A DNA stretch of 64,000 nt from Pseudocercospora fijiensis CIRAD86 (taxonomy: Eukaryota > Ascomycota > Dothideomycetes > Mycosphaerellales > Mycosphaerellaceae), in NCBI RefSeq assembly GCF_000340215.1, contig NW_006921542.1, positions 1,020,267 through 1,084,266 on the forward strand, in the 5' to 3' direction. The translations under genes were made by a program, and so were the position numbers. Of this stretch, positions 4,251-57,650 are shown one piece after another; the first letter of the stretch is position 1, and each line of letters starts with the position of its first letter. The notes beneath the pieces are model-generated. The model did not search any database. It saw only the letters and a list, made by a program, of their open reading frames with translations, and was not told where the DNA came from.

Positions 4251-4286
4251 ACATTACCGCGGCGTCCCACATTACCGCGGCGTCCC
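4251..4286. repeat. 18-bp tandem duplication
   Basis: Two exact adjacent copies of ACATTACCGCGGCGTCCC (4251-4268 and 4269-4286) lie in the 3' flank of the 470-codon gene. It is non-coding as far as I can tell. Confidence 0.9.
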
Positions 4287-20988: not shown

Positions 20989-22427
20989 GTACATGACACT
21001 GTTGTCGGGAGATACGTTCGGGGGTGAAACATTTGCACCGGCAGTCGGCAATCAGACAGAATTGGGCAAAGAATCTTCTCGCTTTCCATTGTCCGGCAAG
21101 TTGCCTCTTCCTCCTTGCTTTCGCTGCCGGCTGGCGAGCTTCGAACTCCAGGTAGGTGAGCTCGGAGCCACAGACTCGGAGCGGCGGCGTACGCATATGA
21201 GTCTTGTCGAGGTCTCGCCTTTCTCTGCCTCATCCGAACTCATGGAGACATGCTGTCCAGAGTACATACACTCCGCCTGTGCTCGCGAATTGGGGTCGGA
21301 CTGGAGTCTGACTTTGGGGAAGCTGGCTTTCCAGCACACACATATGCCATCACAACATCGCCATTTCGCAATACTTCATCTTCATATTTCATGCGCTTGT
21401 TTTATGCATCAAGACCTTTCATTTGCGCCATTGTGTACATCTATACGTTGTGTTTGTGGCGTGTTCTCGGTGGAGAGGGCTAGCAGCTGCCTCAATACCA
21501 GCCCGCCCAGCTTCGGAGGTTTGACGGGCTTCGCCGACACAAGCTTGGCAAGACGAAGCGGTTCGACCACACTGTCAACTACACCGCAATGCACCACCAC
21601 ATTCCATCACAATTCATCACCGATAATTTTCATTTCGTAGAACTCGATGACCCGATTCTTTTGGTGCAAAAATCAGTATATTTGCATCGCTGTGTGACGT
21701 GCATTAATTCGTCGAAGTATTGGGCCAGAACGCCGAGATGCTGACAACGTCGGCTGAGGAAACACAGGCGGGAATCACGAAATCCTCGCATACGTGCAGT
21801 GAGATGATGCTTCAAGAACGGAGCGTTGACTTGTTATGATGTGTACGAATTCAAACTCCTTCGTCGGCAGGCTGGATACATCTATCGACAATTCTGTGCC
21901 TACTGAGTACTCTCCTCCGGGCGGCTGATGCTGTCGATGAGATTCCGCCGACGCCAGCAACGACTCGACGAGAAGGAAGTCCGAGGCTGATCGGAGGTCG
22001 GAGGTCGGCACGCAGCGAATGTCCGCTTCTACAACTCGACGAATCCCCACCAACTCCAGCATCACACCACGCCGCAGTGCAGTGCAGCAACAGCAATCGT
22101 GGGATGCCTCGCCTTCACACAAGCTGCGTGCTCAGTCACGTACCATCAACGGCCACTGCTGCTTCACGAGCCCTTCTCCTCTCGTCGTATGCATCCAATC
22201 ATCTTTCTCCACCAACGACCTGCAAGATGCTGCAGCACCCTCTTCCTGCCGCCAGCTGCGACCAGCCGGCAGCCAGCTTGTGCTGGTCGCCTCCGACAAA
22301 CGACGCATCAATCATGAAAAACATCTGCTGAATCCCACGCTCCTCACCTCACCTACACACTCTCTCCTCACAACTCACCCCAGAGCTGCAACACCAGCTG
22401 ATTCGAGCAGGCGAACGCACATTCACC
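20989..22427. other. 1.4-kb intergenic region in gene island 2
   Basis: Un-RIPed DNA between two plus-strand genes. Open frames on both strands (for example 20975-21640 plus and 21775-22122 minus) have no domain, start context or composition to support them. CT-rich stretches near 22330-22390 just before ATG 22428 resemble a fungal promoter or 5' leader. Confidence 0.5.
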
Positions 22428-24312
22428 ATGCCTCGTCACCGTCGCTCCGCCCGTGACAAGAAGGTGGCCATGACCGACTTATTCCTCCCAGCTCGTGCTG
22501 GCTGACTGACTGACTTGTGAACAGAAGCCTGCCTTCGTGGATGAGTCCGATTACGACAGCTTCGACTCCGAAGCATCTTACCGCTCCAGCTCCAGCTCGT
22601 CTTCCCCGACCAACTCTACAACCAACAAGGCCAAGGCAAGCCAATATCTCCTTGCCTTTGGTGGCCGCACGGAATCGCAGATTCTCGACTCAAAGCGATT
22701 CACGTTCAGCAACAACGACAAGACCGCCATGTTCAAGCATGCTGTCAATTCTGGTTATTGCAAGCGATCTCTGCCTACCGTGGAGCAACTCTTGGCCCTG
22801 GCGAAGTCGATGAACGTCCCGATCGGGGCTACCAAGCTCACAGAGACTTGTCTGAAGAAGATTCTCTCCTGGATCTCCAACAACGTCAGCAACGAGAAGA
22901 CCAAAGGTCTGATTGTGGAAGAGGATCATGGCTACAAGTGCTTTACCATCAATGTCGCCCAAGGTCTGATCAATGCTGTGAACGAGCCTGGCTTCACCTT
23001 CAACTGGCTCAAGAATGACAAGCTGATGAAGCAGAAGCATCACGGTGCAGGACAGACATGGGTGGCCATCGGAAACATCAACGAGGCTGGAGCGACCGCC
23101 ATTGTGAAGGATGCCATGAATTATGTCGCATCGAATCCCGCGGCCTTTTGTACTCCACGAGCATCGGTTGCAGCAACTCCTGGCTTCCTCACCGCACCGA
23201 AGCCAGCAAGCACTCTCTCGCCAGGTTCCCAAACTGCGTCGTTGTCGACGCCGACCGCTCCTGTGTCTGTGATGCCGCGTCCTTTCGCTACTCCATCCTC
23301 CACAAAGCCTCCACGCTTCAGCCTCGAGGACTCTCCCAGCGAAGACTCCGACGTTGATGATCAGCCAGGTACTCAGAAGAAGAAGAAGGCAACTATCAAG
23401 CAGGAGCCCTTCTCGCCGCTCTCGCCTTCGTCGTCATTCTTCCAGACTCCAACGCCTTTTCCACGTACTCAGAAGAAGGATGAGGCAGAAGGCATGACTC
23501 CTCTCTCTTCGACACAGAAGTCGAAATCGAAGTTCAGAGGAGCGCATACGCCCACGCCCACGCCCATTTCAGCCAACACGGTGGAGGACAAGCAGGAAGA
23601 GATCCTGTCTCCATTTCCTCCGGCCCAACAGCAAAAGCATGACTCCAAGTCCATGACACCTTCTGCTGCACTCCCAGTGGCGGCCTTCTCACTCACATCC
23701 CCGCTCCTCCCACTTCCAACTGCTCTTCCGCAAACTCATCAGGAGAGTCTCAAGCAGGAAGGACACTTGACTGACCCAGCTTCTTCCTCTTCGCCTCGTG
23801 AGCAAGAGATCGAACGCCTCAAGGTGAGCTTGCGTGGATGCAGCTACTCCGACGCCGACATCGCAGCCATGGTCGATCATCGCCTTGCTGGCAATACCAA
23901 AATTCCGGATTCCACCAACGTTGCTGCCACCTCACCAGCCTATGGCAATCTCAGCTCTGGCCATCTCAGCTCTGGCAATCTCAGCTCTGGCAGTCCCAGC
24001 TCCCACAAGCCCGGCATTTCCAAACTCAACGAGCCCAATGTCAAAGCGCAGGACATTGCCGAACTCGACGAGCCCAAGGTCAAAGCGCAGGACATTGCCG
24101 AACTCGACGAACCCAAGGTCAAAGCGCAGGACATTGCCGATGATGTCAAGGATACGACGGACAGTGATGATGACGAGGATGAAGTCTCGATGCTAAAGCA
24201 GCAAATGCAGTTGCTTGCTTTGCAGCTTCAGATCCAAGAGGCGAAGGCCAAAGCCAAGAAGGCGAAGAAGGCGAAGAAGGAGGAGGGGCAGAAGAAGGCT
24301 GATGTCGTGTGA
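22428..24312 (+). CDS. Hypothetical 607-aa nuclear-type protein, two exons
   Basis: Exon 1 is 22428-22463 (MPRHRRSARDKK) and exon 2 is 22525-24312. The 61-bp intron (GTGGCC...ACAG) contains a triple CTGAC branch-site run at 22502-22514 and joins in phase 0; exon 2 alone has no ATG at its N-terminus. After an acidic/Ser-rich stretch comes a conserved-looking globular region (about 50-220), then a long Pro/Ser/Thr-rich segment with two psi-K-Q-E SUMO-acceptor-like sites (IKQE near residue 303, LKQE near 420), 5-residue L-S-S-G-[NH] repeats, three 13-residue repeats (about 512-550), an acidic block and a terminal coiled coil ending in Lys/Ala repeats (KAKKAKKAKK). This suggests a nuclear or chromatin-associated protein, but no known domain is recognised. 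Confidence 0.7.
23947..24006 (+). repeat. 15-bp coding repeat (3-4 copies)
   Basis: Units AATCTCAGCTCTGGC, CATCTCAGCTCTGGC, AATCTCAGCTCTGGC and a diverged fourth encode N/H-L-S-S-G in the 607-aa protein. Confidence 0.9.
24022..24138 (+). repeat. 39-bp coding repeat (3 copies)
   Basis: Three contiguous 39-bp copies (24022, 24061, 24100) encode the 13-residue unit E-L-D-E-P-K-V-K-A-Q-D-I-A; copy 1 begins K-L-N and has N for K. The second and third differ by one base, indicating recent expansion or homogenisation. Confidence 0.95.
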
Positions 24313-25440: not shown

Positions 25441-26692
25441 TTTATAAAATTAGGATCTTTTTTTGTTTACTTATATAAGTAGATACTAGGAGTTTAATTT
25501 ATTAGTATAATTATTATCTTTATCTACCTTACAACTTACTCAATCGATATTAACAATATAATAAAGATAATTTTTTTAACTTACAACCTTCTATAATAAC
25601 CGTTCTTTTTTTTTCCTATCTAGAATATTTCCTATAGCATTTTCTACACTATCTAATATAGATTTATCAAATCGTTCTAGATATTTACTATCTAAATATA
25701 TTTCAGTATAGATAGAAGCTCGTAAAACCTTCGAGGATTCTACTTTATCTATAGTAGTCCTAAAACAATTATAAACTGTATAGAATTGTGCTACTTTATA
25801 TAGTTTAAAGAACTTAATAGTTAATAAACTTAAAGAACTTCTATCTAGAGAGTATATAAGGTTAGGCATTAAAGCTCTAATTTGTTTTTTCCTATTATAT
25901 TTATCTTTAATAGTAACTCTAATATTTAATTTAGCCTTATTATACTTAAACAAGCTTTAAGAGGTAGACATAGTTCCTAAGTAACTCTGTCTAATTGTTA
26001 TACTATATAGTAAAGTTTATACTATAGGTAGTTCTAATAGATTTAATATATAAGCTATATTTCTAAGATAGACAGTTAATCTCTTAATTTTCTTACAATC
26101 TTTTATAACTATTTGTTTTATATTAGCGACGAGTCTAAACATATCTAGAATGTTAATCTTATTATTTTTTTCATTAATTGAAATAGAATATTAATCCTCT
26201 TCCGGGGGTAAATTACTAGGATCTAGCTTATGTAAACTACCTTTAATATAGTCAACTGTAGACCTAGTAGTAGCATTGTAAGTAATAGTTATAATAGCCT
26301 TTTTAATATAGCTTCTTTCAAAATAAAAAGCTGCTAATCTTTTATAAGAAACAAATTCTTTTTGTTCGTCTTTACTCCTATTATATATTTAAGATAATAC
26401 TTTAAATTTGCGTTTAATTAGCATATATAACTTATATTATAAGAAACTATAGAAATCCTTATGCTTACTATTATTCTTATTTATATATAGGTTTAATATA
26501 GTAAACAACGTCTTTTTATTACTTAGTAGTGCTATATATTAGAAGCTATTATATATAGCGTTAAGTTGTATAGGTAGATATATAAAGAAATGTATAACAT
26601 TTTCTATTTAATAAAGTTTCTATAACGTTTGTACTCTATACAAAATAATGTAAATAGAAACTTATCTTTAGCTTTATTAATTAAGTTACTAT

Positions 26693-26971
26693 TGAAGGAC
26701 GGAAACCAACACTACCACTACCACTTGTAGCAATAGTACGGGCTACCGAGGGTAATATAACCTATAGCAATATAGGCAGCTATGTTTAGCAAGATAGGAT
26801 AACGAGACTGTCGCTTAGGCTAATAACTAGAGCCCTATAGCATAGGCATTGTAGAAGTATAATATAAACAATATACTATACGAGGTTGATAATCTATCTA
26901 CTCTATAGAAGGAGGCCTCTTATATAGGCTTAAAACTAGCCTATAGGTATAGGGCCGGTTACTAGCTAATA
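26693..26971 (-). repeat. 3' LTR of the 12.3-kb Gypsy element
   Basis: 279 bp. Its element-sense 3' end still reads ...CCTTCA, keeping the canonical CA, while the 5' end is RIPed. It is preceded in element sense by the polypurine tract. Confidence 0.92.
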
Positions 26972-38035: not shown

Positions 38036-38708
38036 AGTTTAGCCTCCTAGGGGTCGCCTAGACATCCCTAGGAGCTTTAATTTAGTAAATTTAGACAAAA
38101 GCCGCTCGGAGGAAGGAACTGCAATCTCTATTCACACCTAGATCCTAGAAACTAGCCACTTTACTAACTATTGTTATCTCCTTTAGCTAGGCGGGGGGGG
38201 CGGGGACCTTCTTTTTCTAGTAAAAGGCTAAACACTGTCCGAACGAGGTAGCGAATCCCGAAACAGTCTACCCGGTTAATAGGGGAACTGCCTAGGCATC
38301 CGACCTATAATCTAGAAATTGCTATCGTATAGATAGTCTTAGCAAACCAAGTAAGGCCGATAGGTAATTAGTCTATCTCCTCCTTAGGCGGGCGGTAGCT
38401 TATCTCGAGCAAGCGGTACTAAATAGGTCTTCGATCCGGAGCCGAGTCCTTAGAAGCTAGCTATAGTTATAGACTAGGCCCTAAGCTATAACAGTCCTAA
38501 GGGTTTGCAGCTTTTCGGGGTTAAAGCGATGCCCTCGTTAAGAGGTTTCTCTACTTGTCGTAACGGCCCCTTAAGATACTTCTATATCGTCTATATCGTA
38601 GGCTCTTATCGTGCCCTCGCTTCGGTTATAGCTATTCGTGCCTAGAGACTACCTTTAACATACCCGAACCTGTTAGATATAAAGAGATAGCCCTACCTTC
38701 GGCTCTAA

Positions 38709-38987
38709 TAAAGGACGGAAACTAATACTACTACTACCACTTATAGCAATAGTACGGGCTACCGAGGGTAACATAACCTATAGCAATATAGGTAGCTATA
38801 TTTAGCAAGATAGGATAACGAGACTGTCGCTTAGGCTAATAACTAGAGCCCTATAGCATAGGCATTGTAGAAGTGTGACATAAACAATATGCTATACGAG
38901 GTTAATAATCTGTCTACTCTGTAGAAGGAGGCCTCTTATATAGGCTCAAAACTGGCCTATAGATGTAGGGCCGGTTACTAGCTAATA
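38709..38987 (-). repeat. 5' LTR of the 12.3-kb Gypsy element
   Basis: 279 bp, matching 26693-26971 along its length. In element sense it starts TATTAGCTAG (TG to TA by RIP) and ends CCGTCCTTTA (CA to TA). Differences between the LTRs are mostly C/T and G/A, so RIP rather than age dominates their divergence. Confidence 0.92.
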
Positions 38988-42995: not shown

Positions 42996-43740
42996 CCTAT
43001 CCTAAGTCTCTATAGTAGTATAAGCGAGTCTATCGATTTGCCGACTTAAGATATAGCTTCTATACTCTTAATAGATACGGCGGTCTAGTACTTTATCGTC
43101 TTAATACCTAGGTACTATTATCGTCTTCGTCGGTAGCCTCTAGCTCTAATAGAGACTCTATATGCTTTTTACCTAATACTAGCCGAGCGTTATCCGTTAA
43201 TCGAACACTTTATAAGAGACGAGACTCTATATACTTTTTACCTAACACTAGCCGAGCGTTATCCGTTAATCGAATACTTTATAAGAGACGAGACTCTAGA
43301 ATCTCTAACTTAGCTCGTATTATTAAACGCTCGACCTAAAGAAGGCCGCTTACCTAATATACTATCCTAACTAAAGCTAAAGAGAATCTCTGCCTTCTAT
43401 TAACTAACTATTCTTATACTTAAATAATAGCGCTAGCTGCCTATAGTCGTTCCTCTATCCTAAGTCTCTATAGTAGTATAAGCGAGTCTATTAATTTGCT
43501 AACTTAAGATACGGCTTCTATACTCTTAGTAGATATAGCGGTCTAGTGCTTTATACCTAGGTACTAATATCGTCTTTGTCGGTAGCCTCTAGCTCTAATA
43601 GAGACTCTATATGCTTTTTACCTAATACTAGCCGAGCGTTATCCGTTAATCGAACACTTTATAAGAGACGAGACTCTAGAATCTCTAACCTAGCTCGTAT
43701 TATTAAAGGCTCGACCTAGAGAAGGCCGTCTATACTAGTT
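42996..43740. repeat. Duplicated block with 69-bp repeats
   Basis: A segment starting CCTATCCTAAGTCTCTATAG occurs at about 42997 and 43453. A 69-bp unit starting GAGACTCTATATGCTTTTTA lies at 43152, 43221 and 43601. No coding frame. Confidence 0.8.
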
Positions 43741-44530
43741 ACTAGCGGTATTAAACAAAATTCTAAAGACAAGAATATAGCAAAAGAGAAGCTTAATCGT
43801 CTTAACTAAGCGACTGTGCTTACTAACGCCGAAGACATAATATACCTATACTTTAGCTTCGACCGTAACGAGTAAAGCGGCGGCAACGGTAATAGCGCCG
43901 GACTTAGTACTAATAAGATTAACGTCTAGCGCGCCTAATTCGCTATCTTCTATTATTATATTTATAAAGAATACTATAAAGCTATTAGAAGCGGTAGACT
44001 AGCTAAGTTCTAGGTAGAAACAAACAGAATCGCTTAGAATACGATCGATAAAGTTATACCTCCCTTCGAAGGCGGCTTTCTAGGGTCTTCCGAGCTACCT
44101 TATACTTACGCCGATACGAAATTAAAGGAGTGCGAGACTTACGGCTACCTAGACTAGCGAGCTTATAGAAGGGGATACGCTATAGCTATTTTCTAATAGA
44201 ATAAGGCCGCATACCTTAGAAGGCTCGGAATTACGAAGGAAATAGCACTTCTCGGTACTTCTACTATTAGATCCTATAAAACGAGGTAGTATACTTTAGG
44301 AAGCTCGGAATTACGAAAGATAGAAGGAGGAAGCTAGGTATTACGAAAGATAGAAGGAGGAAGCTAGGCATTACTAAAGATAGAGGATAAGCGCGAAGCC
44401 TAAGGTAGATTCCTTTATCTACTAGGTTTTTATACTACTAGTATTACGAGTCGTACGAGTAGGGGAGAGCCTAAGGGTTACTAATCTTTATATTCCGTAC
44501 GCGCGATAGGATCCTAAATAGCGTTAAAGA
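43741..44530. other. RIPed sequence left of the hAT-type element
   Basis: No interpretable gene. It includes a small tandem repeat with unit about 33 bp (GGAAGCTAGGnATTACnAAAGATAGA) around 44270-44390. Confidence 0.5.
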
Positions 44531-44550
44531 TAGACCCCGTAGTAGTTCGG
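44531..44550. repeat. Left terminal inverted repeat of the hAT-type element
   Basis: TAGACCCCGTAGTAGTTCGG; identical in inverse orientation to 54404-54423. Confidence 0.9.
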
Positions 44551-44960
44551 GTTGGTTTAGTTTAGTTTACTAAGCCGAAACTCTAGTTTAGTTTAGGTTG
44601 GTTTGCTAAGCAACTATATAAGTAGCTAGTTCGAACTATATAATTTATCGGTTTTTAAGAAGTGTACGAATGTATACGTAGCTTTAAGCAAGCCCTTTGT
44701 AAGACTTAGTAGTGTAGCCGGCAGCGTAGCCGGCATTTTTAGTCCTTAGTACTTATAGAATTTTCGAATCCTACTTAGGCTACGTAGTTGTATAAAGGTA
44801 CTTATATAACCTTAAATCTATAGACAATTAGCTAAGGGCACTAACTAATCAAAAGTATATATATATATATAAGGCATTATAGTTTAGTTCGGAAACTGTA
44901 CTCCTTAGGTATAAATTTCATCCTTTCGTTTATAGTTTAATTCCCTAACTGCTTAGTAGA

Positions 44961-45420
44961 ATGTCTTTATCTAGATCTAGGTAGAACTTATCGATTTCCG
45001 TCGAAGCTCTCCTTAAGAAGTTCTAGCACTTTCCTACTAAACTATACTCTAATATTAAGTACTAGGATAGCTCCTCCCTCGATATTAGTACTATATACGA
45101 AACAGCTATAAGGCAGCTCTATAGGGTATTCTACTAGTTACTCGCTATACTATAGCCGAATACTAGTTCGTTCCTTAGAACTCTAGGTTATTTAGTAGAT
45201 ATTAAGGATAGGGCAGGCAGTAACTTCGTATTATATAAGGAAGTAGAGGCTGCTATAGAGGAGTCCTTTAACCTATAGAAGATAGTAAAAGATATAAAGG
45301 CAGCTATAGGTCTAGGTACCTAGTTGAATTTCTAGTAGGTAGAGTATAAGGATATTTAGTAGGAGTATTAGATAGAGTTACGAAAGCAGGTATATAATAT
45401 AGTCTAGAGAATAGGGATAA
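44961..45420 (+). pseudogene. Small unidentified ORF of the hAT-type element
   Basis: From ATG 44961 (MSLSRSR) one frame continues about 150 codons with stops only at likely Gln/Trp positions. It is helical and charged (SVEALLKKF, YKEVEAAIEESFN). No known domain. It is the only frame in the element that I read on plus. Confidence 0.4.
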
Positions 45421-45798
45421 TGCCTATAACTATAAGTATTAGGTTCTTTAATCTTCCTCCTTTTTTCCTTGTTTTCTTTTTATAAAAATCCAAACTAATA
45501 CAAATTAACTAGAATGTCTATCTTCTTTTAGTTCTTTTTAAGACCTAGCAGCGTAGCCGGTAGCGTAGTCGGCCTTTTTACTCCTAAGCACTAACGGGTT
45601 TTTCGAAGACTTCTATTCTATACGGCTAATAAAGTATACTATACTATATAGGTATACTTAGAGAGTATTTAGAGCGCGGTATATAGCGCCGTATAATAGC
45701 GGCTTATTTCGTATATAGAAAAGCTTATAGACGACACTACGAATATCCTTCCTACTAGAACATCTATCCTACCTAGTACTATCTCGAATATAGACATT

Positions 45799-46474
45799 CT
45801 AGCCTTTTAGAATCTAATCGAGTGCTTTAAAATCCTTGTCTATAATCGTTATACGCTTCGCGTAGATAGCTATAAGGTTAACCGCTAAAATAGTATTAGT
45901 ATAGTCCGAAAAGAGGTAGGAGAGAAACATATATTCGAAGATACGAACTAGGTAGGCTTCTATAGCCTCTTAAAGGGCGTCTATCGCGGAGGCTTAGAAG
46001 CGAAGGTCCGTTCTATAAACCTAGGCAATTTCGCGAACAAGTCGTCGGAAAGGAGCTTTACGGATTAGAAGCTTAGAACTCTTCTAATACTACCGAATCT
46101 TACGGAGGGCTACGGCTAAAGAAGGATTAGTAAAAAGATAGTAAGAATACCGGCTACGCTACCGGCTACGCTACCGGCTACGCTACCGGCTACAAATAGG
46201 ACTTACTTCCTAGGCGCTATCGACGCTTCGTACGATTACTACTAGTAGTAGAAGCGCTAGTTATCGTCTTACGTAGAGCCTTGCCCGCCGTTATCTTACG
46301 CGGAGCCTTACTCGCGACGCCCTTTCTAGTACCGGAGCTAGCGGCAGTAGTAGTAGCTCTCTTACGTTAATATACTATACTCGTTCTATTATTTCCGGTC
46401 TTATTACGACCCGTAGAAGTAGTAGGTCCCTTCTTACGAGGCGTCGTAACTTAGTTAAGTAGACTCGGTATTAT
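45799..46474 (-). pseudogene. Histone H3-like gene A, three exons, RIPed
   Basis: Exons on minus: 46474-46207, 46115-45933 and 45884-45799; together 537 nt (179 codons). The tail is long and Lys/Arg/Thr-rich (SKAPRKITAGKALRK recalls H3 GGKAPRK). After it comes G-T-V-A-L-R-K-I-R, then LLIRKAPFRRLVREIA, TDLRF, ASAIDAL-stop-EAIEAYLVRIFE and AIYAKRITIIDKDF, each matching the canonical histone fold of H3 in order and spacing. Intron 1 (46206-46116) starts GTAAGT, ends TTTAG and has a TACTAAT branch site; it splits the Thr codon of P-G-T. Intron 2 (45932-45885) ends TTTTAG, and its donor looks RIPed from GTATGT to ATATGT. The start codon reads ATA. Confidence 0.88.
46116..46206 (-). other. Intron 1 of H3-like gene A with 12-bp tandem repeats
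   Basis: A 91-bp intron bounded by GTAAGT...TTTAG. It contains four copies of GCCGGTAGCGTA (46151-46195), the same GCCGG motif found in the intergenic spacers of the element. Confidence 0.8.
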
Positions 46475-47019
46475 AAAAGTCGTCGAATTAAGGAAAAAAG
46501 TGCGTTACGAAGGTATACGAAGGCGCGCGCGGAGCGAGGGTATTACGGAGGTAGTAGATATAGAGCGTAGAGGTATAGGTATCGATACGAAGGTTAAATA
46601 TAGCGAGAGAGGTAGTATCGCGGTATCGCTAGGCAACAGAGTAAGCTTCGCGTAAGCCTATATTATAGTAACGTTAGAGTAAGGAAAGAAGGTAGGCACG
46701 GCTAAAAAAGGCAGGTACGGCTAAAAAAGGCAGGTACGGCAGACTTTGAAATATAGCCGGCATATATAGCCGGTATAGTAATAGGCGAAAGCCTCCTTTT
46801 AATAAATAGCCGGCGTAATAATAGTATCCTATTATAGTATAGATATTCTTTAGTAATGCCTTTACTAGCTATAGTAATCTTATAAGTAACCTAGGCCTAT
46901 TGCTAGTAAATATAAGAAATATCAGGTAGGCTATACTAAACAAGCTAGTTATTTAGCAGGAAAAGGCCTACTACCGTCTCTATATACCGGCTACAAGTGC
47001 CGGCTATCGCTCTAAATTC

Positions 47020-47731
47020 AACTCCGCCCTATCTCGGAGGCTAAGGTACCGAGCGGAAACCCTATAGCTTATATTTACTCGGTTGTCGCGGAGCGCTTAT
47101 AGGTAAGGTATTAGAAAAGAGTATAAAAAGTACGAGAATAGTATCCTAGGATATAGGTCGTAAGTGAATAAGAGTAGCACGCCTAGTTATTTATATAGTA
47201 CGTTACTCTATACGACTAAGAGCCTATATTATCTCGTGCTTCGCTTATAAGACCTCGACTCTACTAATATACTATTATTCTCCTACTCGGTCGCTAGCTT
47301 AAATCTTCTTCGAGTTGCCGGACTTAGTACGTATCTATAGCTATATAATAGCGCTACGTATTATAGAGAATTAACTCCGCCGTATCTCGAAGGCTAAGGT
47401 ACCGAGCGGAAATCCTATAGCTTATATTTACTCGGTTGTCGCGGAGCGATTATAGGTAAGGTATTAGAAAAGAGTATAAAAAGTACGAGAAGAGTATCCT
47501 AGGATATAGGTCGTAAGTGAATAAGAGTAGCACGCCTAGTTATTTATATAGTACGTTACTCTATACGACTAAGAGCCTATATTATCTTATACTTCGCTTA
47601 TAAGACCTCGACTCTACTAGTATACTATCGATCTCCTCCTCGGTCGCTAATACGCTATCTTAATTCTTCTTCGAGTTACCGGACTTAGTAAGCATCTATA
47701 GCTGTACAATAGCGCTACGTATTATAGAGAA
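47020..47731 (-). repeat. 353-bp tandem duplication between the H3-like genes
   Basis: Copy 1 (47020-47372) and copy 2 (47373-about 47731) are near identical apart from C/T and G/A differences. On minus each copy has an ATG frame beginning M-[RL]-T-K-S-G-N-S-K-K, reminiscent of a basic histone-type N-terminus, followed by a possible intron. I cannot identify the protein. Confidence 0.7.
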
Positions 47732-47749
47732 TTTCTCGTTAAAGTTTCT

Positions 47750-48040
47750 CTCTCGTAGGCTTGCTATCTGCCTCGTAGTATAGAGGATTAAAGTACTACT
47801 GCTAAAGAATCTCCTTATAGTTAGGATACTAGGGCTCCTTAGGACCTTTGTGTTTTAGGTCTAAATAGAGACGTATTATAAACGTTCTATCGCCCTTTCG
47901 CTTACTACCCGCTAGGTCGCGATATACGAAGAAACTAATCTAAATATAGCTCGTCTCTATAATAGCCGGGTAAATATAGAGCGCTAGGTTTCTACTTCGT
48001 ACCTTAGATTTAGGGACGGCGCGGAGATAAAATCAGAAAT
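47750..48040 (-). other. Unassigned stretch between duplication and H3-like gene B
   Basis: Minus frame text such as KPSALYLPGYYRDELYLD suggests former coding sequence, but no family is recognised. It ends at a GCCGGT spacer (48043-48062). Confidence 0.3.
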
Positions 48041-48122
48041 ATAGCCGGTACCTATAGCCGGTAAAAGGATGCGAAAATAGGCCTCCTCCTAGGTTAATCT
48101 AACGACTAAATACAATTTCTAA

Positions 48123-48698
48123 CTAATCCGCTATAAACCGACGCCGAATTTTAGCTAGAAGCTATATATCTTTATTTTAAAGAGTAACCCGCTTCGTATA
48201 GATAGTAAGGAGGTTTAAAAGCTTAAGCTCGGTTACGAGAAATGCCTCTATAGCTTCCTAAAGAGTACTAATCGCCTTAGCCGTAAATCGTATACTAGAC
48301 CGAAAATCTAATATAATTTCTCGGACGAGTCGCTAGAAGGGAGTCTTAGGGATTAAAAGCTCGGTCCCTCTTTTGTTTTAGAAAAGCCGGATCTAGCGAA
48401 GGGCAATAGTACCTAGTTTAAAGCGCCGCTTCTTTATCGTCGAGTCCTACCTTGTTCCCTTTTTTTTAATAGAAAGATAACTTTTCTTCGGATAGTCTTC
48501 GTCCGCCTACTCTTTTTAGCCTTCTCCTATCTACCTAAAGCCTTCTTATTTTTTAGTACTATTTTCCGAGGAACCCCCTTCCTTCGTATATACTACGGAG
48601 AGCCTTACTCTTCCGATATCTCGTTCTCGCTATAGTCTCCCTATACTTAGCTTGCTTTACCCTTACCCTTTAGCCTCTAAAGATATTTATCTACGCAT
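48123..48698 (-). pseudogene. Histone H3-like gene B (divergent), RIPed
   Basis: One frame of 576 nt (192 codons) from ATG 48698, with stops at expected Gln/Trp positions. It has a long polar/basic N-terminal region (about 115 codons), then KKRRFKLGTIALR, GTELLIPKTPF, RLVREIILDFRSSIRF, AISTL-stop-EAIEAFLV, TIYTKRVTL and NKDI, following the H3 fold order. It lacks the introns of gene A. Compared with canonical H3 it has two extra residues before ELLI, Pro in LLIPK, and a divergent loop after EAFLV (TELKLLNLL). Divergence and a long tail recall centromeric H3 variants, but that is only a resemblance. Confidence 0.8.
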
Positions 48699-48719
48699 TT
48701 AGGCGACTAGGGTATATCG

Positions 48720-49080
48720 GTAGGACCTAGAAAATTAATAAGCATATAATCGTAAGGAGATATTAATACTTCTTACCTTCTAGAACAAATAGTCTTCTAT
48801 TAAACCGCCTTAGTAGGTTATCGTTAGATTCGAATAAAGGATAGTAGCTTAAGGAAGGGGAGGTAGCCGGCTTAGGAAGGCCCGAAGAGCCGAATCCTTA
48901 AGGTATATTTATCTTTAAGAATATAGGGAAAGGGAAGAAGGAGAGCAAGAGCGAATAGAGAATTAGAAATAGTCCGTAGATAAGCGGGGTCGGTTGCTAT
49001 AGCAACTAGTCTGTTTAGGTCCTAGGAATTCGAAACACATTTCGGATATATACCGGCTATATACGCCGGCTATATTACCT
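48720..49080. other. Spacer before the transposase end
   Basis: No interpretable frame; contains the GCCGG cluster at 49053-49070. Confidence 0.4.
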
Positions 49081-49089
49081 TATACGTAA

Positions 49090-51450
49090 ACGCTTCGTCT
49101 CCTTAAAGCTACTCTAAGCCTATATACGTTTCCGCTTCTCGACCCGGTATCGCCTTCTACCTCCGCCCTCCTTCTCTTCGTTATCGCTAATTAGGGTTTC
49201 GCTTAAACTAAATTTCGTATTCTCTTCGCGCTCCTAGGTTTCTTCGATCTTAAGGTTTTCTAATTCCTCGATTAACTCCTTTAGTATAATCTTTAGTAAC
49301 CTACCTTAGCGATTCTAGTAGAGGAGATAGTATCGGAATACTATAATAGATTCGAAGGTAGTAGGTAAGTATATTCGATTAAAGCGGCCCTAGTAACGAG
49401 CGATACTAAAAGACCTCTTATAGCCTATACCTACGCTCGGGATAGCGAGGACGTCCCGAGCGACCGACGCTATCGTTAGAAACTTAGGCTCTAACCGCTG
49501 CTATATAGCGAGAATATCGTCTCCGAATTCGTCTAGAAGACCGGTAAGATCTAGAGATTATTAGCCCTCTTTCCGAGCCTACGGGTTTATACTTACTCGC
49601 GCGCCGATAGAGATCGAACTCTTCTTTATTCCCTTTAGTAGTTGCTTCCTTTTCTACCTCTACTTCCTACCTACGAAATAGGTATAATATCGGAGCCCTC
49701 TAAACCTTCTTTTTCTTTATAGGAGCTGTATTTAGACTAGTTTCTTTCCGACGCTCGTAGAATATCTTTTCTAGAATAGTCTAGTAATACTTCGGCTATA
49801 CCTCGTCTGCCTTCTATTCCGGCCTCTACTAGTATATATCCTTTTCTACCGGGTTAAGTAAGTACGTAACGCTATAGATATCCCCGAACGACTTAAAGGT
49901 AGCACTATAATATTTATATAACTTAGTATAGGAGCTGTCTATAGCTTTCGTTATAGCTACTTTCTAGGGAACGCTCTTCTTAGCTAGCTTAGCTACGGTT
50001 TCCTCGAGCTCGTTAAAGAGCTAGTTATAGTACGTAAAGACAAGGTAGATCGTCGGTCCTCGGGTTCTTCTAATCGTAGTAGTAACCTTCGCGTAATACT
50101 TACTAATATCGACGAGATACTCTGCTTAGCGCTATTCGGCGGCGGTAAGGCCGAGCTACTTAATACCCTCGGAACTCTAATAGATCTCGAGAGCGGTACG
50201 TAAAGTATATCCCCTCGTAACTATATAAAAAGTCAAATCGAACCGGGTCTTAACGTCTTAGGTAAAACAGAGTAGGCGCTAAGGAAGCCGCTTTTGCTAT
50301 CGCTTATTCTATACGATATTCTAAGTATCGGTTTTAGGGCGCTCGATTAGGTTCTTTTAAATAGCCTCGAATCGGTTATATCTCTATAAGCTCGAGTTCG
50401 TATATATTGCTAGACGACGAAGCTAGAGAAAAAGAGTTAGAACTATACTAGGTTACTAGCTATAGGTACCGGCTACGGACAAAAGTTATACTTTATATAA
50501 AACGAGAGCGAGGCTCTCTACCTTATCCTATCTTATTGCTATAACGAGTATCTCGACTTTCGACTTTGCCTTATCCTTATCTAGGATCTTCTATTAGTCG
50601 TCGTTTAATAGTGCAATTTTAAGCGTCTTAAAGAGGGCTCGGATCGCGATTTAAACTATATAAGCGAGGTAGGGAAACTTCTATAGGGATATAACTAGTA
50701 ACGACGTCGGCTCCGATTTAATAGGGCTAGGGCTATTACTAGGCTCCTCTTTATCGTTATCGTCGTACGTATTATCGTACGTATCCGGAATCGTAGCGAG
50801 CTTAATATTCGGAAGATTAAGCTAGATTATAGACCTTATAATCTCCTCTACGTACTCGACCCTATCGATACAATTAGTAATTTCAAAGACATATACGAGT
50901 AAATTGCATATATAACGCCTTATACAATGTTCGATTATTACTAGCGTTATCCGTAGTAATCGAGATTAGTTTCGTTATTACGCTAACTCTATCTATTGCC
51001 GTATAGATAAGCTTCGCTATATCCTTACTAGTATAGGAACCTAGAATTTTAGGGAACCCGATTATAAGTTCCTAGAGTTTCTAATCCGAATTAATAAAGT
51101 ATAGTATAATCGAGAGGAAGGAGGCTCTTATAGTCCGGCTTAACTAGCTATCGATAGTAATAGCTACTCGGCGAGTATTACGGAGGATCTCCCGAATATC
51201 GTCTAACGTAGCCTCTTTGTTCTTTTCGAATATAATACGCTAGGTTATCGCGCCGAGAAATAGGGGAGGGTAGTTTGTAAGATATAGGTATATCTTCTAT
51301 ATAGACTCCCTTTCGTAGAAGTCTTCCGGAAGACCGTTTGTAGCTAGTATTTCGTTTGCTAGTTGCTTAAAGTCTTCGGGGGAGAAATCGGTAGCCTTTA
51401 ATCCTAGAGCTTCCTTAAGCGTAGCCTATAATAATTAGCTAGATCTCTAC
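49090..51450 (-). pseudogene. hAT-family transposase (RIPed)
   Basis: The minus frame, with TAG/TAA stops, reads TDFSPEDFKQLANEILATNG, ITIDS...RTIRASFLSIILYF, then KLISITTDNASNNRTLYKAL (50935-50985), the hAT D-N-A-x-N-N core, then TRFDLTFYIVTRGYTLRTAL (W to F/S region), PTIYLVFTYYNQLFNEL-like text, and the C-terminal dimerisation block DDILAI...QRLEPKFLTIASVARD and IPSVGIGYKRSFS (about 49.38-49.53 kb). Order and spacing are typical of hAT transposases, about 780 residues. At least one frame change occurs near 50.92 kb. It would cut and join the element ends. A BED zinc finger was not seen. Confidence 0.85.
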
Positions 51451-51599
51451 GGTTGATTAAAGTAGCCGGAATCTATAGCCGGTAGCTATAGCCGGCAGCT
51501 ATAGCCGGCATTTTAGAAGATATACCTCTTTCTAGAACGCTATATCTATATTAACTCTCCTCTCTCCTTAAGATTCCCGATACTGTTTAGAATAGAGAT

Positions 51600-52260
51600 A
51601 GTTCGTAGGCGATAAGTTCCTATCCCCTAGTTTCGGGTATTTTAAGATTAAACCGTAGAAGTTATAGACAATTACTAGTTAACCTTTAAGTCGAGAAGTC
51701 GTATAACGGTATAATGCCCCCTCTATAAAGAACTTCTAGAATATATCCGTTCGCTCCTTACTCCCCTATCGCATCGAGTACTTCCGGAGTTTATACTCCT
51801 TCGAACGTAAGTATAAAGGGAACTATATCTTATAGACCTATTAATTGAACTGCTCTATATACTCGGGTTTCTAAAGATACGCCTAGCTAGCCTTTTCGAA
51901 GATTTCCGGGTTAATACTCGATATTCTTATATCTCCGAATAACCTTCTACTTAGACTCCGTAAAGGTAAGGACTAGGTAGTAGTACCCTATAATGAATTC
52001 CTACTACTAGGATTCGAAGAGGATAAATCTAGCCCTAATCGTCGTCTAGGACTCGATAGGCTCGAAGGTAAGTATACGACCTCCTCTCGACGTTGTCGCA
52101 ATCTCGCTCGTATACTAGACTATTTCGACTATCGTCTCGTTATTACCCTTCCTAGTATAGCGCCTAGTATATATACAATATCGGTCGGTATATTTTAAGG
52201 TTTCGTACGGTAAGGTAAGGACTTAGGAGTAGTAGATATATACTAGTAGCTATAGGGAAA
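51600..52260 (-). pseudogene. Unidentified RIPed ORF upstream of the transposase
   Basis: Two overlapping minus frames are plausible (one with EYIEQFN, LRSKEYKLRKYSMR; another with TFEGV, TPEVLDAIGE). It may be the first exon(s) of the transposase or a separate gene. The GCCGG cluster at 51469-51512 separates it from the transposase, favouring a separate gene. Confidence 0.3.
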
Positions 52261-52449
52261 CACCCTTTCTTTTATAGTATCGTATCGTTAGGAATAGCTA
52301 GGTAGTAAATAGCTAGCTACCTTTTTTTTGTTTCCTAGCTACCTAACTGCTAGATTTTTTTTCCTAGCTACCCTAGCTAGCCTAACTACTAGAATTTCTT
52401 TCCTAGCTACCCTAACTACCTAAATTTTGCCTTCTATACGGCGGCTCTT

Positions 52450-53430
52450 TCCTACTAACGGAACCGAGCTACTATACCTAACGAATCTAAGCTCGTTTTT
52501 AGTCTTAATCTATCCTCTTTCGGTATAAGATACTCGATAAGCAAATACTTAGGCCGAGTCTAACTACGAAACCTAAGACTAACTAATAGCTCTATTAACT
52601 AATCCTAATCCTCGAACTCCTTCCGCTTCTTAGTAAAGACCTTAAAGAGCGCTCGAGCTTCTTCGGGTACCTACGGAGTAGTCGAGATAAAGCCGTATCG
52701 CTAAAATAGGTAATCCTTCGGAGGCTTATATAGAGATTTAGAGAATTCTAACGCTAACCTATCCTACTAGTAGCTTAGATTCCGGATACAAGCCCTCTCT
52801 ACCTTAGTAAAGATTTTATATAGTAGTAGCACTCTACCTTCGAGAAACGCTTTCTATTTAACTGTTAGTATCTGCTAGCTACGAACGCCGGCTATATATA
52901 CCGAGTATAGAATAATTACCTATACCCCTTCCTCCTATAGTAACACTTCTACCGTCCCTAGATACCTAGCCCCGATCGTATTAATCGTAAGCTACTTTGC
53001 CTTTATAGACGCAAAGGCTTCGCTCTAATACTAATAAAGAAACTTCTGCTCTATATCGAGGATATAAAGACGACTAGTCTCGATTCTAATCCTTGCTAGC
53101 TTTTCGTAGTAGCTTTGACTATAATTTTCTAGATTAAGAGGACTTATGCCTTAGCCCTTTACTAGTATCTCGTCTCTTTAACTATACTCGATCTACTCCT
53201 AGCGCTTATCGTCTATAGCGTTAGGCCCTAAGACTATACCTATTACTAGATCGACGTATAGTATCTCCTCGCTTTTTTTAGTTCCTTTATTCGTAGTATT
53301 AAGCTCTATCGCGGTATTCTAAACTCTAGTATTATTGTTTTCGGCTATCTAAATATCTCCGTTACTATCGGTCGTATCGATAGAGGTAGCGGCTATAGGT
53401 CTCAATACTATTAGTTAACGTATTAAAGAA
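52450..53430 (-). pseudogene. Unidentified RIPed ORF (about 330 codons)
   Basis: A minus frame with TAG/TAA stops only: LRPIAATSIDTTDSNGDI, then LGPNAIDDKR, NLENYSQSYYEKLARIRIE, KAFLEGRVLLLYKIFTK, EFSKSLYKPPKDYL, PEEARALFKVFTKKRKEFED. Mostly helical and charged; no domain recognised. Followed in element sense by a TTTTTTTGTTTCCTAGCTACC-rich stretch (about 52310-52430). Confidence 0.45.
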
Positions 53431-53509
53431 AAATATACCGGCTATAGCTGCCGGCTACGGCTACCGGCTATAGCTGCTAGCTACGGCCGCTAGCTAGATT
53501 AACTTACGC

Positions 53510-53850
53510 TACTAGAACTTTACGCTCGAAAACTAGCCGCAATTCTTTCCTCCTTTTAGCCTTCTCTTAGGTTGTCTTCTTATTCTAACCTTTACTTTTT
53601 TCTATAGGCGCTAGCTATCGATAGAATACCTTATTCCGCGCCTTTCTTCTCTTATCCTTAGCTCTTTTATCCTTATCTATCTTCTCCTTTCTCTTACGGT
53701 CTCGTACGGAATTCTTCTTCGTAGAGTACTCCTCTTTAGTCTTACGCTTTTTAGTTAGACGCTTAGGTAAAATAAACTCGCGGTCTTTAGTTCTATCTTC
53801 TATTTAGCGCGCGGCGCGCTTCTCTCTTACTATTATAAGGGAAAGGGGCG
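53510..53850 (-). pseudogene. Small Lys/Arg-rich protein ORF
   Basis: A minus frame of about 110 codons, very basic (KRLTKKRKTKEEYSTKKN, RKRKEKIDKDKRAKDKRRK). It could be a DNA-binding or nuclear-localised partner of the element; no fold recognised. Carried alongside histone-like genes, a chromatin link is possible but unproven. Confidence 0.45.
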
Positions 53851-53964
53851 GGGGCGTAGCGTATAGTAGTTATTATCGGTATAGGTATAGAGGAAGAAGT
53901 TGAAAGTATAAGAATAACGCGAAGCCCTAATTGTTGCCGCCTACGTAACGTTATATAGGTAAGC

Positions 53965-54290
53965 TTTCGTAACTACGGCAACTACGCCCCGGTAATAGCA
54001 ACTACGCCCTAGCAACGGCAACTACGCCCTAGCAACGGTAACTACGCCCTAGCAACGGTAATAGAGCGTAGTAAATACAACCTAGTAACTATTATAGCCG
54101 GCAATCGTAGCCGGTAGTCGAATAAGAGTGTCCTTATAGTAAAACTACGCCCTAGCAATAGCAACTACGCCCTAGTAACGACAACTACGCCCTAGTAACG
54201 GCAAAAGAGCGTAGTAAATGTAATAGAGTTACTATTATAACCGGCAATCGTAGCCGGCAGTCGAATAAGAGTATCCTTATAGTAAAACTA
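53965..54290. repeat. Tandem array of 18-bp and about 150-bp repeats near the right end
   Basis: Units AACTACGCCCTAGCAACGGC recur in two groups (53965-54062 and 54145-54200), each followed by a block with AATCGTAGCCGG and GTCGAATAAGAGTnTCCTTA. The larger unit is thus duplicated. Confidence 0.85.
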
Positions 54291-54403
54291 ATATAGTCTC
54301 TAGTTTAAACTAGGAATCTATATAGTTCGAAAAAACCAAACCGGAACTAGGGAGCTAGTTCGCCGCTAAGAAACTAAACTATATACGTTTAGTAGTTCGG
54401 AAA

Positions 54404-54423
54404 CCGAACTACTACGGGGTCTA
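54404..54423. repeat. Right terminal inverted repeat of the hAT-type element
   Basis: Exact reverse complement of 44531-44550. Confidence 0.9.
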
Positions 54424-55100
54424 GGTATATAGCTACCTAGCTATAGTACTATTATACGTAAAGCTAGTAATCGATCGTAGTTTTTACTATATACCTCCTT
54501 AATTGTTTCGTCTACCTATACTAGGGTTTAGGTAGTAGGAAACATCGTCTTATATCCTCGGGCCCTAGTTAACGTAATAGCGAATAGTTTACGACGTGTC
54601 TTATTATATAAGATTTGCTCCCTTGCTTCGAGTAAGCCCTTCTTTCGATTTAAACGTTCTTTACTAGAAGTCGTTAAGCCTTTGTCTCGCTTCTTACGTC
54701 GTTTTAATAGCTTTATATCGTCGCTCTAATCCGCCCTATCGTCGCTATACTTCCGTTTTAGCCTTGCTAGATCTTTGCTATTCTTGCCCTTATACTAGTT
54801 ACGTTAGTCCTCTATTACCGTACTCTAGTATACGTTACCTTTATTAATTTCGATCTAATGCTAGTCGCTATATATAAACGAGTCTCCTCCCCGTTTTCTT
54901 CTTCGAATCTAGTATCCCTATCCGACTCTATCGAGTTAGATAACGACTTAGTTTAGTATTTATCTTCTTCGTAGTTGCGACCTATCCTAAGTATACTATA
55001 ACGAGTAGTAGTATTGTTACGAATCTAACGTAGTATATATTAGACTATACGGGTCTTTATACTTGTTTACCCTACGAAAAGGGGGGTATTAAATTGCGGT
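54424..55100. other. RIPed sequence right of the hAT-type element
   Basis: A possible minus frame with acidic text (about 54,540-54,970) is seen but cannot be assigned. No repeats noted. Confidence 0.4.
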
Positions 55101-55109
55101 TTTATCTTC

Positions 55110-57650
55110 TACTCCTATATAGACTGCCCGAGTCGCCGTCTATAATCGCTTATTAGTCCTGTCGGATATGCCCTACTAACGCTAAAGTATAATCGTAGCC
55201 TATAGACTGTTCGCTATTTTCGTACCTTGTCGACGCTAGCCCGATTCGGTCGCGAGTCGGATTTAGGAACTATTAATCTAGCGCTATTATTAGTCTAGCG
55301 GTAATTATTGTAGTCTATGCCGACGGTATATAGTAATACTATCGACATTGTACTAAAGCAATCGGCGTATTTAGACTATTTATTCCTCGCTCGGTCGCTA
55401 CTACGGTATATATAGATATATATTCTTTATCGGTAAATTAATCGGCGTTAGCTAATCCGCTAGGTCGAATACATACCTTCGAAGCCGCCTCGTAGTATTA
55501 CGGGTTAGTTAGAACTATCTCTATCGGCGTGTTTAGCTAATTCGAGGTTAATAATACCGTAGAGGCCCTATACTCGATAGATGCAATTCGAAATAGATTA
55601 GCTAGAGGTATATAATCTACCCTAGTACGACGACTGCTAGTCGTAGCCGATTTAGCCTTTCCTTAACTATCGCGCTACCCCGAGTCCGCTATCGCTATAG
55701 CGCGATTAGGGTGCTTAAATATAGGCCGAGATTAAATAGATAAAGGAAGAGATCGCGGCGCTTAAGACTACTATACGTAATATACTTACTATATATTAGC
55801 ATATGTCTAAGATTAAAGCGTAGTGCTTATCGTAGCCGGGGCATCTTGCCTTCCGTTTAATAAATAGATTAGTACCTATTACTATTAGAGTAGGACTTCT
55901 ATATCGGACTTAGTAAAATTAATTATTTATTATGCTTTTCTACGTTTATATTTACGCTCGTTCTGCCTCCTTAATTTGCCTATAGATTGCAAATCGCAGC
56001 TATAGGCCTCTACCTAATATATCGGATAGACTAGCCCTCTACTATCGCTCGTTGTTAATTCGAACGTATCTATATTAGTCGCTTATCTAATATAAGGCGT
56101 CGACTCCGGCTTCGAAACTACAATCTACCCGTAGTATCTTAACTAATCGTTCGAGGTCTATATTATCGACTCCTACTAACGCGCGGCCTCTAACTATAGG
56201 CTAGCGATAATCGAGTTTATATAGTCGATATATAGGTTTTACCTTCCCGTTCTACTCTTATACTATAACTATACTCTACTATACATTATTTAGTACGCGG
56301 TACGGCGGTACCGCTCTAGATCCTTCTAGTATCGCTAGTCTAGTATCCGTAGATATAGCAATTTCCGCGTAATCGCTAGTATCGCCGACTCTACGCGTTA
56401 TTACGCGTACCGTTTTTCGTCTCGTCTATCGGCGATAATTAGAACAAATCTTATATATTAGGTACCTAAACGCAGTCTGTCCCTCTACCGTACGGATCTG
56501 CTTTACTACCTTAGGGAACTCTTCTTCGTATTTCTCGTCTATTAATACTAGGTCGTATAGGTAACCTTGCGTCCTTCGGCGTTCCGGCAATAATAGTAAT
56601 CGGAACGTGCTACTAATCTAACTAGACTCCTAAATTGACCTCTCGACGCTAGCGTAAAATGCGTAGTATATCGATAGCGATAGGCTAAGGCCGCAGGTAA
56701 TACCGCCTATTAAATATTAATCGCGAGGTAGTTAAGTACGTAGCATTCTCGAAGGTAGTAGTTGTATATATAGCGTAGTAGAAAGTCGACGTTAGTTAGT
56801 AGTAGAAACTAGAACTACTCTAGTCGCGGGGTTTGCTAATACCGACTCGGGCCCTAATTCGGTATCGAATCGGGTACTAAGCCTACTAGACAACTTCTAT
56901 ATCCTCTATTACTAACTTCGGTAGCGGGTTCGGCAAATTACATTATCTATTATCTCGCTTCTTAACCTTACGCCTAGTGTATTATATTGCTACGGATCTA
57001 TATACGGTCGTTTATTCGGCCTCCTACTTAGACTACTACTCTAGTATACGATCTATAGAATATTTCGATCGTTTTATGCCTTTGTTTGCTACTCGTTATA
57101 GCTAAACATATGCCTTTTCGCCGCCGATAGAGTTAGTAGTATCTATAGAAAATGTACTATCTTAATCGTTAGCTCGAACTATCTATATGCCCTACTCTCG
57201 GGTCCTAAGACTAACCGCCTTACTAGCCTATACCCTCGTACTATAGCGGGTCTAGTCTACCCGCTATCGTATAATAATTGTTAGTTACTATAAGGACATA
57301 GATCGGTTAATTTAGCTACATTGCGTAGCTTATAAGCACTCGCGTCTCGCGCCGGCGATCGTAGTCGCAACTCTACTATAGATAGGCTTATATTTATATT
57401 ACTAACTTTCGATTACTTGTTACGTAGTACTATATTTACTGCGACTTGTTAGTCCTATATCTAGAACCGTCTATCGTATAGGGGTTTATACTACAACGAT
57501 TATCTATAGCCTTATTACTTCGGTTACTAGTTGCGTAACTAAACTGTTATATACTTAAGCGCTAGATGCCTTACTTCGTCGATTTATTAGCTAGTTAGGC
57601 CCGACTCGCTAACCGACCTAGTTACGAGGTAGGCATTTAAAGTCGTTACC
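55110..57650 (+). pseudogene. Long unidentified RIPed frame
   Basis: One plus frame remains interrupted almost only by TAG/TAA for about 2.5 kb, Arg/Leu/Tyr/Ser-rich (CSLCRRY, LSRFLTLRLVYYIATDLYTV, SIEYFDRFMPLFATRYS). It might be an antisense artefact of RIP-biased sequence, as Arg/Leu richness on one strand can mirror a real frame on the other. No family recognised. Confidence 0.3.

What the first reader, a model, noticed from the sequence alone, without database searches (positions are those of the whole stretch)
44531..54423. A hAT-type element with two histone H3-like genes as cargo
A perfect 20-bp inverted pair encloses a hAT transposase and two distinct genes whose translations follow the H3 fold (RLVREIA..., EAIEAYLV/EAIEAFLV, AKRIT/TKRVT) in order and spacing. 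I know of no described DNA transposon family carrying histone H3 variants. Such cargo could affect nucleosomes on the element, silencing, or centromere-type chromatin.
Basis: partly seen in the sequence, partly recalled or inferred. Interest (0 to 1): 0.95.

Follow-up and report, generated by a model that had tools for sequence, protein, structure and literature searches.

The report
Published fungal transposon carrying histone genes
This is one mutated copy of a jumping gene, already described in 2019 from the banana black-leaf-streak fungus, that carries two histone H3-like genes; new here is that one of them appears to have introns, so it was probably not picked up as a plain copy of the host's histone message.

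Summary
Window 44531-54423 is a whole, RIP-mutated hAT-type DNA transposon with a perfect 20-bp inverted repeat pair, a degraded hAT transposase and two different histone H3-like genes, all three genes on the minus strand. In the same genome 9 of 20 fetched copies are complete (9.57-9.92 kb). All 9 hold both H3 regions and 7 of 9 have exact 8-bp target duplications; the window copy has none. The novelty claim fails. Genome size, largest contig, host H3 gene on contig 6, element length, 20-bp TIR, 8-bp TSD and one or two H3-like copies match the family that Dhillon et al. 2019 described in Pseudocercospora fijiensis (PMC6710886); Manning et al. 2013 first reported an H3-carrying hAT. Three points go beyond what I read there. 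(1) The '16-residue insertion' of one H3 copy looks like a 48-nt intron, and that gene has a second intron, which argues against capture of a host H3 transcript. (2) A roughly 80%-identical subfamily carries the same two H3 genes. (3) Both genes lie away from canonical H3 and CenH3 in a tree, beside an intact Tricladium protein, with moderate support. Neither looks like CenH3. What the H3 proteins did is unknown.

The parts
44531..44550 (+). left terminal inverted repeat, 20 bp
   Evidence: perfect reverse complement of 54404-54423; the match starts at its first base in 40 of 40 scored copies
54404..54423 (-). right terminal inverted repeat, 20 bp
   Evidence: right end of 9 complete copies
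45805..46411 (-). H3-A: H3-like gene; tail exon 46411-46207, core exon 46115-45933, C-terminal exon from 45884 (read to 45805; true start and stop not determined)
   Evidence: PF00125 E=2.2e-18 on the core exon; coordinates
46116..46206 (-). H3-A intron 1 (predicted), 91 nt here, 79-115 in copies: GTAAGT...ACTAATCCTTCTTTAG, holds a 12-bp minisatellite
   Evidence: conserved in subfamily copy L033
45885..45932 (-). H3-A intron 2 (predicted), 48 nt: donor GTATGT (ATATGT in this copy), branch-like ACTAAT, acceptor TTTTAG; the published '16 aa insertion'
   Evidence: 18 of 18 copies keep ACTAAT and TTTTAG; donor G in 6 of 18, A in 12 of 18
48126..48428 (-). H3-B: second H3-like gene, no intron over the histone fold; a basic tail reads on upstream
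   Evidence: PF00125 E=1.8e-23; coordinates
49270..51480 (-). degraded hAT transposase (limits approximate); Dimer_Tnp_hAT at 49399-49518
   Evidence: (weak), frames by eye, indel-poor stretch with partly codon-periodic transversions
46148..46193 (+). 12-bp minisatellite TACCGGCTACGC x3.8 inside H3-A intron 1
47015..47733 (+). tandem duplication of about 360 bp between the two H3 genes
   Evidence: 92% identity; split alignments at the same place in other copies
52430..53350 (-). further minus-strand readable frame, unidentified
   Evidence: no Pfam match up to E=10

Best explanation
It is a RIP-inactivated copy of the published histone-carrying hAT family of Pseudocercospora fijiensis. Shown: the family has 20-bp TIRs and 8-bp target duplications, many near-identical copies, and two H3-like genes as fixed parts of every complete copy seen; the copies examined are full of stops in RIP context. 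Inferred: a hAT transposase encoded by the element cut and pasted it. Inferred: the H3 genes were spliced, translated, H3-type proteins resident in the element for a long time, rather than one transcript copy of the host H3. The function of those proteins is not shown.
For: Copies, TIRs and TSDs. H3 domains. hAT C-terminal region (weak). RIP: TpA/ApT 1.94 and (CpA+TpG)/(ApC+GpT) 0.18 against 0.49 and 1.35 at the host H3 locus. Identity with the published family: 73.94 Mb and contig 1 of 11,880,248 against about 74 Mb and 11.8 Mb (PMC4981457); intact H3 exon on contig 6 against 'original H3 on scaffold 6', 9.5-9.9 kb, 20-bp TIR, 8-bp TSD, one or two H3 copies per element. Introns in H3-A. A second subfamily, about 77-86% identical over the main aligned pieces, has both H3 genes and an exact 8-bp TSD. 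Tree and AU tests. RIP-proof transversions between subfamilies favour third positions, 22/186 against 19/372, Fisher p=0.0057, tail exon left out.
Against: The window copy itself has no TSD. The transposase match is below Pfam's cut-off. With the H3-A tail exon included the transversion excess is 26/253 against 31/506, p=0.056; the tail alone shows none (4/67 against 12/134). The introns differ less than the exons (1/93 and 1/54 transversions), which I cannot explain. The tree rests on 101 columns with RIP-altered residues, and H3-A alone with ascomycete H3 is not rejected (p=0.304). No transcript was seen, so the introns are predictions.
Confidence: 0.9

Rival explanations
1. Passive transduplication: a transcript or retrocopy of the host H3 was captured once and hitch-hiked (the published reading).
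For: H3-B reads without interruption across the sites of host intron 2 and of H3-A intron 2; H3-A with canonical ascomycete H3 is not rejected (p=0.304); the published alignment of ten near-full-length copies is said to show no introns.
Against: H3-A has two predicted introns. One sits where host H3 has none; the other is one codon away from host intron 2. H3-A and H3-B of the window copy are only 62% and 52% identical to host H3 (53/86, 47/90), while host H3 equals Golovinomyces H3 in 95/95; RIP inflates this gap. One clade of A+B+ascomycete H3 is rejected at p=0.0197.
Confidence: 0.25
2. Transposon-encoded H3 variants work for the element: they enter nucleosomes and alter silencing or access on element DNA.
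For: Both subfamilies keep both genes. H3-A's tail keeps the H3 spacing of K9, K14, K18, K23 and K27 in window and L033 (read by eye). ESTs of the H3-like gene exist in Pyrenophora (PMC3538342).
Against: No functional data. Of 150 PF00125 places scored (of 772 candidates) only 2 have no stops, and both are host genes, C6 and C5. The tail exon shows no transversion sign of selection.
Confidence: 0.3
3. The cargo is a centromeric H3 (CenH3).
For: Many of the 75 hits to H3-B carry CenH3/Cse4 names; H3-B shares EAFL with CenH3; AU does not reject either gene with CenH3 (p=0.197, 0.263).
Against: Loop 1 has the H3 length and the CenH3 C-terminus is missing; seven CenH3 form their own clade, 99/97, without either gene; the best PDB matches of H3-B are H3.3.
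Confidence: 0.04
4. The H3 genes are separate nested insertions with their own ends, or the TIR pair belongs to a short element.
For: None found.
Against: All 9 complete copies hold the same order between the same TIRs, and the diverged subfamily copy on C12 holds both genes between related TIRs.
Confidence: 0.01

Closest known systems
Histone H3-carrying hAT family of Pseudocercospora fijiensis (Dhillon et al. 2019, PMC6710886; main text parts 1-5 of 7 read)
   Same: 9.5-9.9 kb, 20-bp TIR, 8-bp TSD, one or two H3-like copies, RIP, hundreds of copies, original H3 on scaffold/contig 6, genome of about 74 Mb
   Different: The paper reads the 16-residue difference as an insertion, infers capture of an intron-free transcript, and reports DUF659 but no dimerisation domain. 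Here the insertion looks like an intron, H3-A has a second one, a weak dimerisation-domain match is found, and DUF659 was not found.
H3L-carrying hAT of Pyrenophora tritici-repentis (Manning et al. 2013, PMC3538342; passages seen)
   Same: hAT with a histone H3-like gene and a further ORF as cargo
   Different: 5.6 and 2.3 kb forms, one H3L, mostly intact, with ESTs; no similarity of element sequence to the Mycosphaerellaceae elements according to the 2019 paper
Repeat family R25 of Stagonospora nodorum (Hane and Oliver 2010, PMC3017866; passages seen)
   Same: transposon-like RIPped repeat with histone H3 similarity
   Different: superfamily not named in the passages seen; there read as a gene-derived repeat
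P0004, histone-fold protein of Tricladium varicosporioides
   Same: intact protein sharing the TE(F/L)EL(T/S)NL stretch with H3-B and grouping with it (91/84); listed on 3 contigs
   Different: loop 1 is two residues longer than in H3-B; its DNA neighbourhood could not be seen, so whether it lies in a transposon is unknown

Membership tests
hAT superfamily | 8-bp target site duplication | tested here: met
   exact in 7 of 9 complete copies (one in a microsatellite) and in the one subfamily copy checked, C12; absent in L012, L016 and the window copy
hAT superfamily | short terminal inverted repeats | tested here: met
   20/20 bp
hAT superfamily | transposase with hAT dimerisation region | tested here: inconclusive
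   PF05699 E=0.009, 16 bits, under the 21.4 cut-off; conserved frame in 11 of 11 copies read
hAT superfamily | DDE catalytic residues | not tested
   catalytic positions were not sought in the RIP-damaged frames
P. fijiensis H3-hAT family (Dhillon 2019) | length 9.5-9.9 kb, 20-bp TIR, 8-bp TSD, one or two H3-like copies, RIP | tested here: met
P. fijiensis H3-hAT family (Dhillon 2019) | DUF659 domain in the transposase (hAT domain reported in 277 of 471 elements) | tested here: inconclusive
   no DUF659 match in Pfam scans of single RIPped copies; the paper used another program (TransposonPSI) and finds the domain in only part of its elements, so a miss here decides nothing
P. fijiensis H3-hAT family (Dhillon 2019) | same TIR letters | not testable with these tools
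   given in a figure; no supplement look-ups allowed
CenH3 | longer loop 1 than H3 | tested here: not met
   H3-A and H3-B have the H3 loop length; host CenH3 (L030) and six fungal CenH3 are longer
Canonical H3 retrocopy | no introns | tested here: not met
   two predicted introns in H3-A; H3-B has none over the fold
Histone H3 fold | PF00125 over cut-off and near-gapless H3 alignment | tested here: met
   (H3-A gapless after splicing, H3-B with one 2-residue insertion near the alpha-N helix)

The most novel reading that the evidence does not exclude
A transposon-specific H3 lineage exists across fungal classes (Dothideomycetes hATs, the Tricladium protein P0004 and metagenome protein P0076). 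It has its own two intron positions and is kept by hAT elements as working genes that shape chromatin on the element, rather than repeated passive capture of host H3. P0076 is H3-B-like in sequence, and its peptide read-throughs (GSK...SAVALRE and ELESMF) fit GT-donor introns at the same two sites as H3-A; this is inferred from protein letters only.
Probability: 0.25. Interest if true: 0.85.

Novelty: already known. Interest (0 to 1): 0.4.

Why it matters
The element is in print, so the finding is not a discovery. The correction does matter: if one cargo gene is an intron-bearing, diverged H3 shared by two transposon subfamilies, the published story of a captured host transcript needs revision. 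The question then becomes why hAT elements in several fungi carry H3 genes. Element-coded histones would be a direct way for a transposon to act on host silencing, and an intact relative (P0004) exists to test it.

Tried and rejected
Tried without result: ORF listing with ATG/GTG/TTG starts, 60 aa or more, 43500-55500 (none); Pfam over six frames of the right half of the element and of subfamily piece L035; Pfam on the 52430-53350 frame, which by eye recalled a copia Gag-type stretch, not confirmed. The alignment-based homology search was flooded (7,988 hits, 120 listed); three rows of the tree (P0183, P0186, P0214) come from it. Two scripts stopped with errors and were rerun mended; the motif search looked for wrong letters and was redone.

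Considered and rejected: Tc1/mariner (TA ends), because 8-bp TSDs lie outside TAG...CTA; CenH3; nested insertions; a chance TIR pair. PMC4994206 was opened (passages) and only cites the 2013 paper.

Selection: the H3-A tail exon was set aside from the pooled transversion test in the script, before its result was seen; it shows no excess, and with it the pooled p is 0.056. Tree rows: 21, namely 6 element and host rows and 15 chosen by hand of the 220 database proteins listed.
Full report
What is there. The window lies at contig 11, 1020267-1084266, of a 73,937,190-base genome in 30 contigs. Window 44531-54423 (9,893 bp) is bounded by a perfect 20-bp inverted repeat. It is heavily RIP-mutated: TpA/ApT is 1.94 and (CpA+TpG)/(ApC+GpT) 0.18, against 0.49 and 1.35 at the intact host H3 locus. 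No ORF of 60 aa or more with an ATG, GTG or TTG start overlaps 43500-55500. With stops read as residues, Pfam Histone PF00125 hits two minus-strand places, E=1.8e-23 (H3-B) and 2.2e-18 (H3-A core).

It is one transposon, and the H3 genes are integral. The left 170 bp matched 40 of 40 scored places (of 507 first-look candidates, the window included) at 98-100%; H3-A 40 of 40 (of 442) at 96-100%; H3-B 40 of 40 (of 415) at 98-100%. I fetched 20 of the other 39 left-end places in 10-kb stretches, chosen without regard to H3. Nine reach a right TIR (9,568-9,916 bp) and all nine contain both H3 regions. Of the other eleven, L010 reaches element position 9822, where my 10-kb stretch ends; L028 reaches 9818 and then leaves the element, with no right TIR found; L024 reaches 8413; the other eight are interrupted or truncated earlier. 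Exact 8-bp target duplications flank 7 of 9 (L009, L011, L014, L015, L020, L025, and L027 in a GAA microsatellite). L012, L016 and the window copy have none. So the window copy was probably rearranged after insertion, but the family inserts as hAT elements do.

Transposase. Frames read by eye on the minus strand at about 51480-49270 look hAT-like. Pfam gives Dimer_Tnp_hAT (PF05699) at 49399-49518 with E=0.009 and 16 bits, below the cut-off of 21.4; scans of longer frames gave nothing. The motif frame is seen in 11 of 11 copies read. The stretch has few indels and partly codon-periodic transversions against a diverged subfamily. The DUF659 domain reported in 2019 was not found here.

It is already known. 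Searches of open full texts lead to Dhillon et al. 2019 (PMC6710886; parts 1-5 of 7 read). They describe in P. fijiensis a hAT family of 471 H3-bearing repeats, full length 9.5-9.9 kb, 20-bp TIR, 8-bp TSD, one or two H3-like copies per element, inactivated by RIP, and the original H3 on scaffold 6. Here the intact H3 exon is on contig 6, contig 1 is 11,880,248 bp, and the published assembly is about 74 Mb with a largest scaffold of 11.8 Mb (PMC4981457, passages). Manning et al. 2013 (PMC3538342, passages) first reported a histone-carrying hAT. Hane and Oliver 2010 (PMC3017866, passages) found H3 similarity in a RIPped repeat of Stagonospora nodorum. A 2026 paper (PMC13041039, passages) cites the 2019 finding.

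What the published account seems to miss: introns. The 2019 paper says that where two H3 copies lie in one element they differ by an insertion of 16 residues in the second, and infers capture of an intron-free transcript. In 18 of 18 copies aligned, the extra 48 nt of H3-A ends in ACTAATACTATTTTAG or, in the subfamily, a near-identical end. The donor G is present in 6 of 18 and A in 12 of 18, always after T, the RIP context TpG to TpA; the full GTATGT stands in 3 of 18. Removing the 48 nt gives ...RIFE-SV-NLIAIYAKRIT, gapless against H3 FE-DT-NL. Upstream, the tail exon ...RRXRLG (X a TAG) joins TVALRKIR across a stretch with donor GTAAGT and acceptor TTCTTTAG. It was matched in 15 of 18 copies; two more (L017, L019) show the same signals in the printed sequence, and L024 was not resolved. 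Among the 15 its length is 79 (5), 91 (9) or 115 (1) nt, steps of the 12-bp minisatellite unit. Host H3 is uninterrupted at FE-DT, and its second intron splits the Gly codon one codon upstream. Both introns recur in subfamily copy L033, and the second is also visible in L034. So H3-A is not a simple retrocopy of this host's H3, if the introns are real; no transcript was seen. H3-B has no intron over the fold, so for H3-B alone a retrocopy remains possible.

An older association. A second subfamily, about 77-86% identical over the main aligned pieces, has similar TIRs and, in the one copy checked (C12), an exact 8-bp TSD, GAAGTAAA, with its own H3-A and H3-B. Transversions, which RIP cannot make, fall at third positions in 22/186 against 19/372 at first and second positions, Fisher p=0.0057, for the H3-A core and C-terminal exons plus H3-B. 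Against this, the H3-A tail exon shows no excess (4/67 against 12/134), with it the pooled result is 26/253 against 31/506, p=0.056, only the C-terminal exon is significant by itself (p=0.0071), and the introns differ least (1/93, 1/54). Each side is a single RIPped copy. By eye, the H3-A tail keeps the H3 spacing of lysines 9, 14, 18, 23 and 27 in both subfamilies (sequences).

Relatives. Identity over the fold to host H3 is 53/86 (H3-A) and 47/90 (H3-B) in the window copy; RIP missense lowers these numbers. In a 21-row tree on 101 columns, H3-A, H3-B and the intact Tricladium protein P0004 stand on one side of a branch (85/90), H3-B with P0004 (91/84), and seven CenH3 form their own clade (99/97). 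Holding A+B with three ascomycete H3 is rejected (AU p=0.0197), as is B alone (p=0.038). H3-A alone is not (p=0.304), and neither H3-A nor H3-B with CenH3 is rejected (p=0.263, 0.197). Support is moderate and long branches are in play. P0004 is listed on 3 contigs, a hint of several copies, no more. P0076, a metagenome protein, reads through what look like introns at the same two places; I had no DNA for it.

Function. Nothing here shows what the H3 proteins did. Of 150 PF00125 places scored (of 772 candidates), two have no stops, C6 (host H3) and C5 (host CenH3); the 622 candidates not scored were not seen. A chromatin role for the element's own benefit is a testable idea, not a result.

Noticed in passing
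44531-54423: The 9-mer TAGCCGG(T/C)A occurs 24 times on the two strands of the element but only twice in the other 54 kb of the window; some copies sit inside H3-A intron 1. It could be a repeated transposase-binding motif or a spreading minisatellite.
   Followed up: partly
44531-54423 flanks: The window copy lacks the 8-bp TSD that 7 of 9 complete copies have, as do L012 and L016, suggesting recombination between copies or an assembly join.
   Followed up: no
52430-53350: A minus-strand readable frame, about 0.9 kb, upstream of the transposase, with no Pfam match; by eye slightly like a copia Gag-type region, unconfirmed.
   Followed up: partly
17740-24309 and 4183-7258: Islands with little or no sign of RIP (about 52-55% GC) and open frames of up to 630 codons, set between RIPped repeats.
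   Followed up: no
26689-26971 and 38705-38987: Direct repeat of 283 bp, 93% identical, 12 kb apart, bracketing a RIPped block: possibly the LTRs of a retroelement.
   Followed up: no
H3-A introns, window 46206-46116 and 45932-45885 against L033: Between subfamilies the introns carry fewer transversions (1/93, 1/54) than the exons; unexplained.
   Followed up: no
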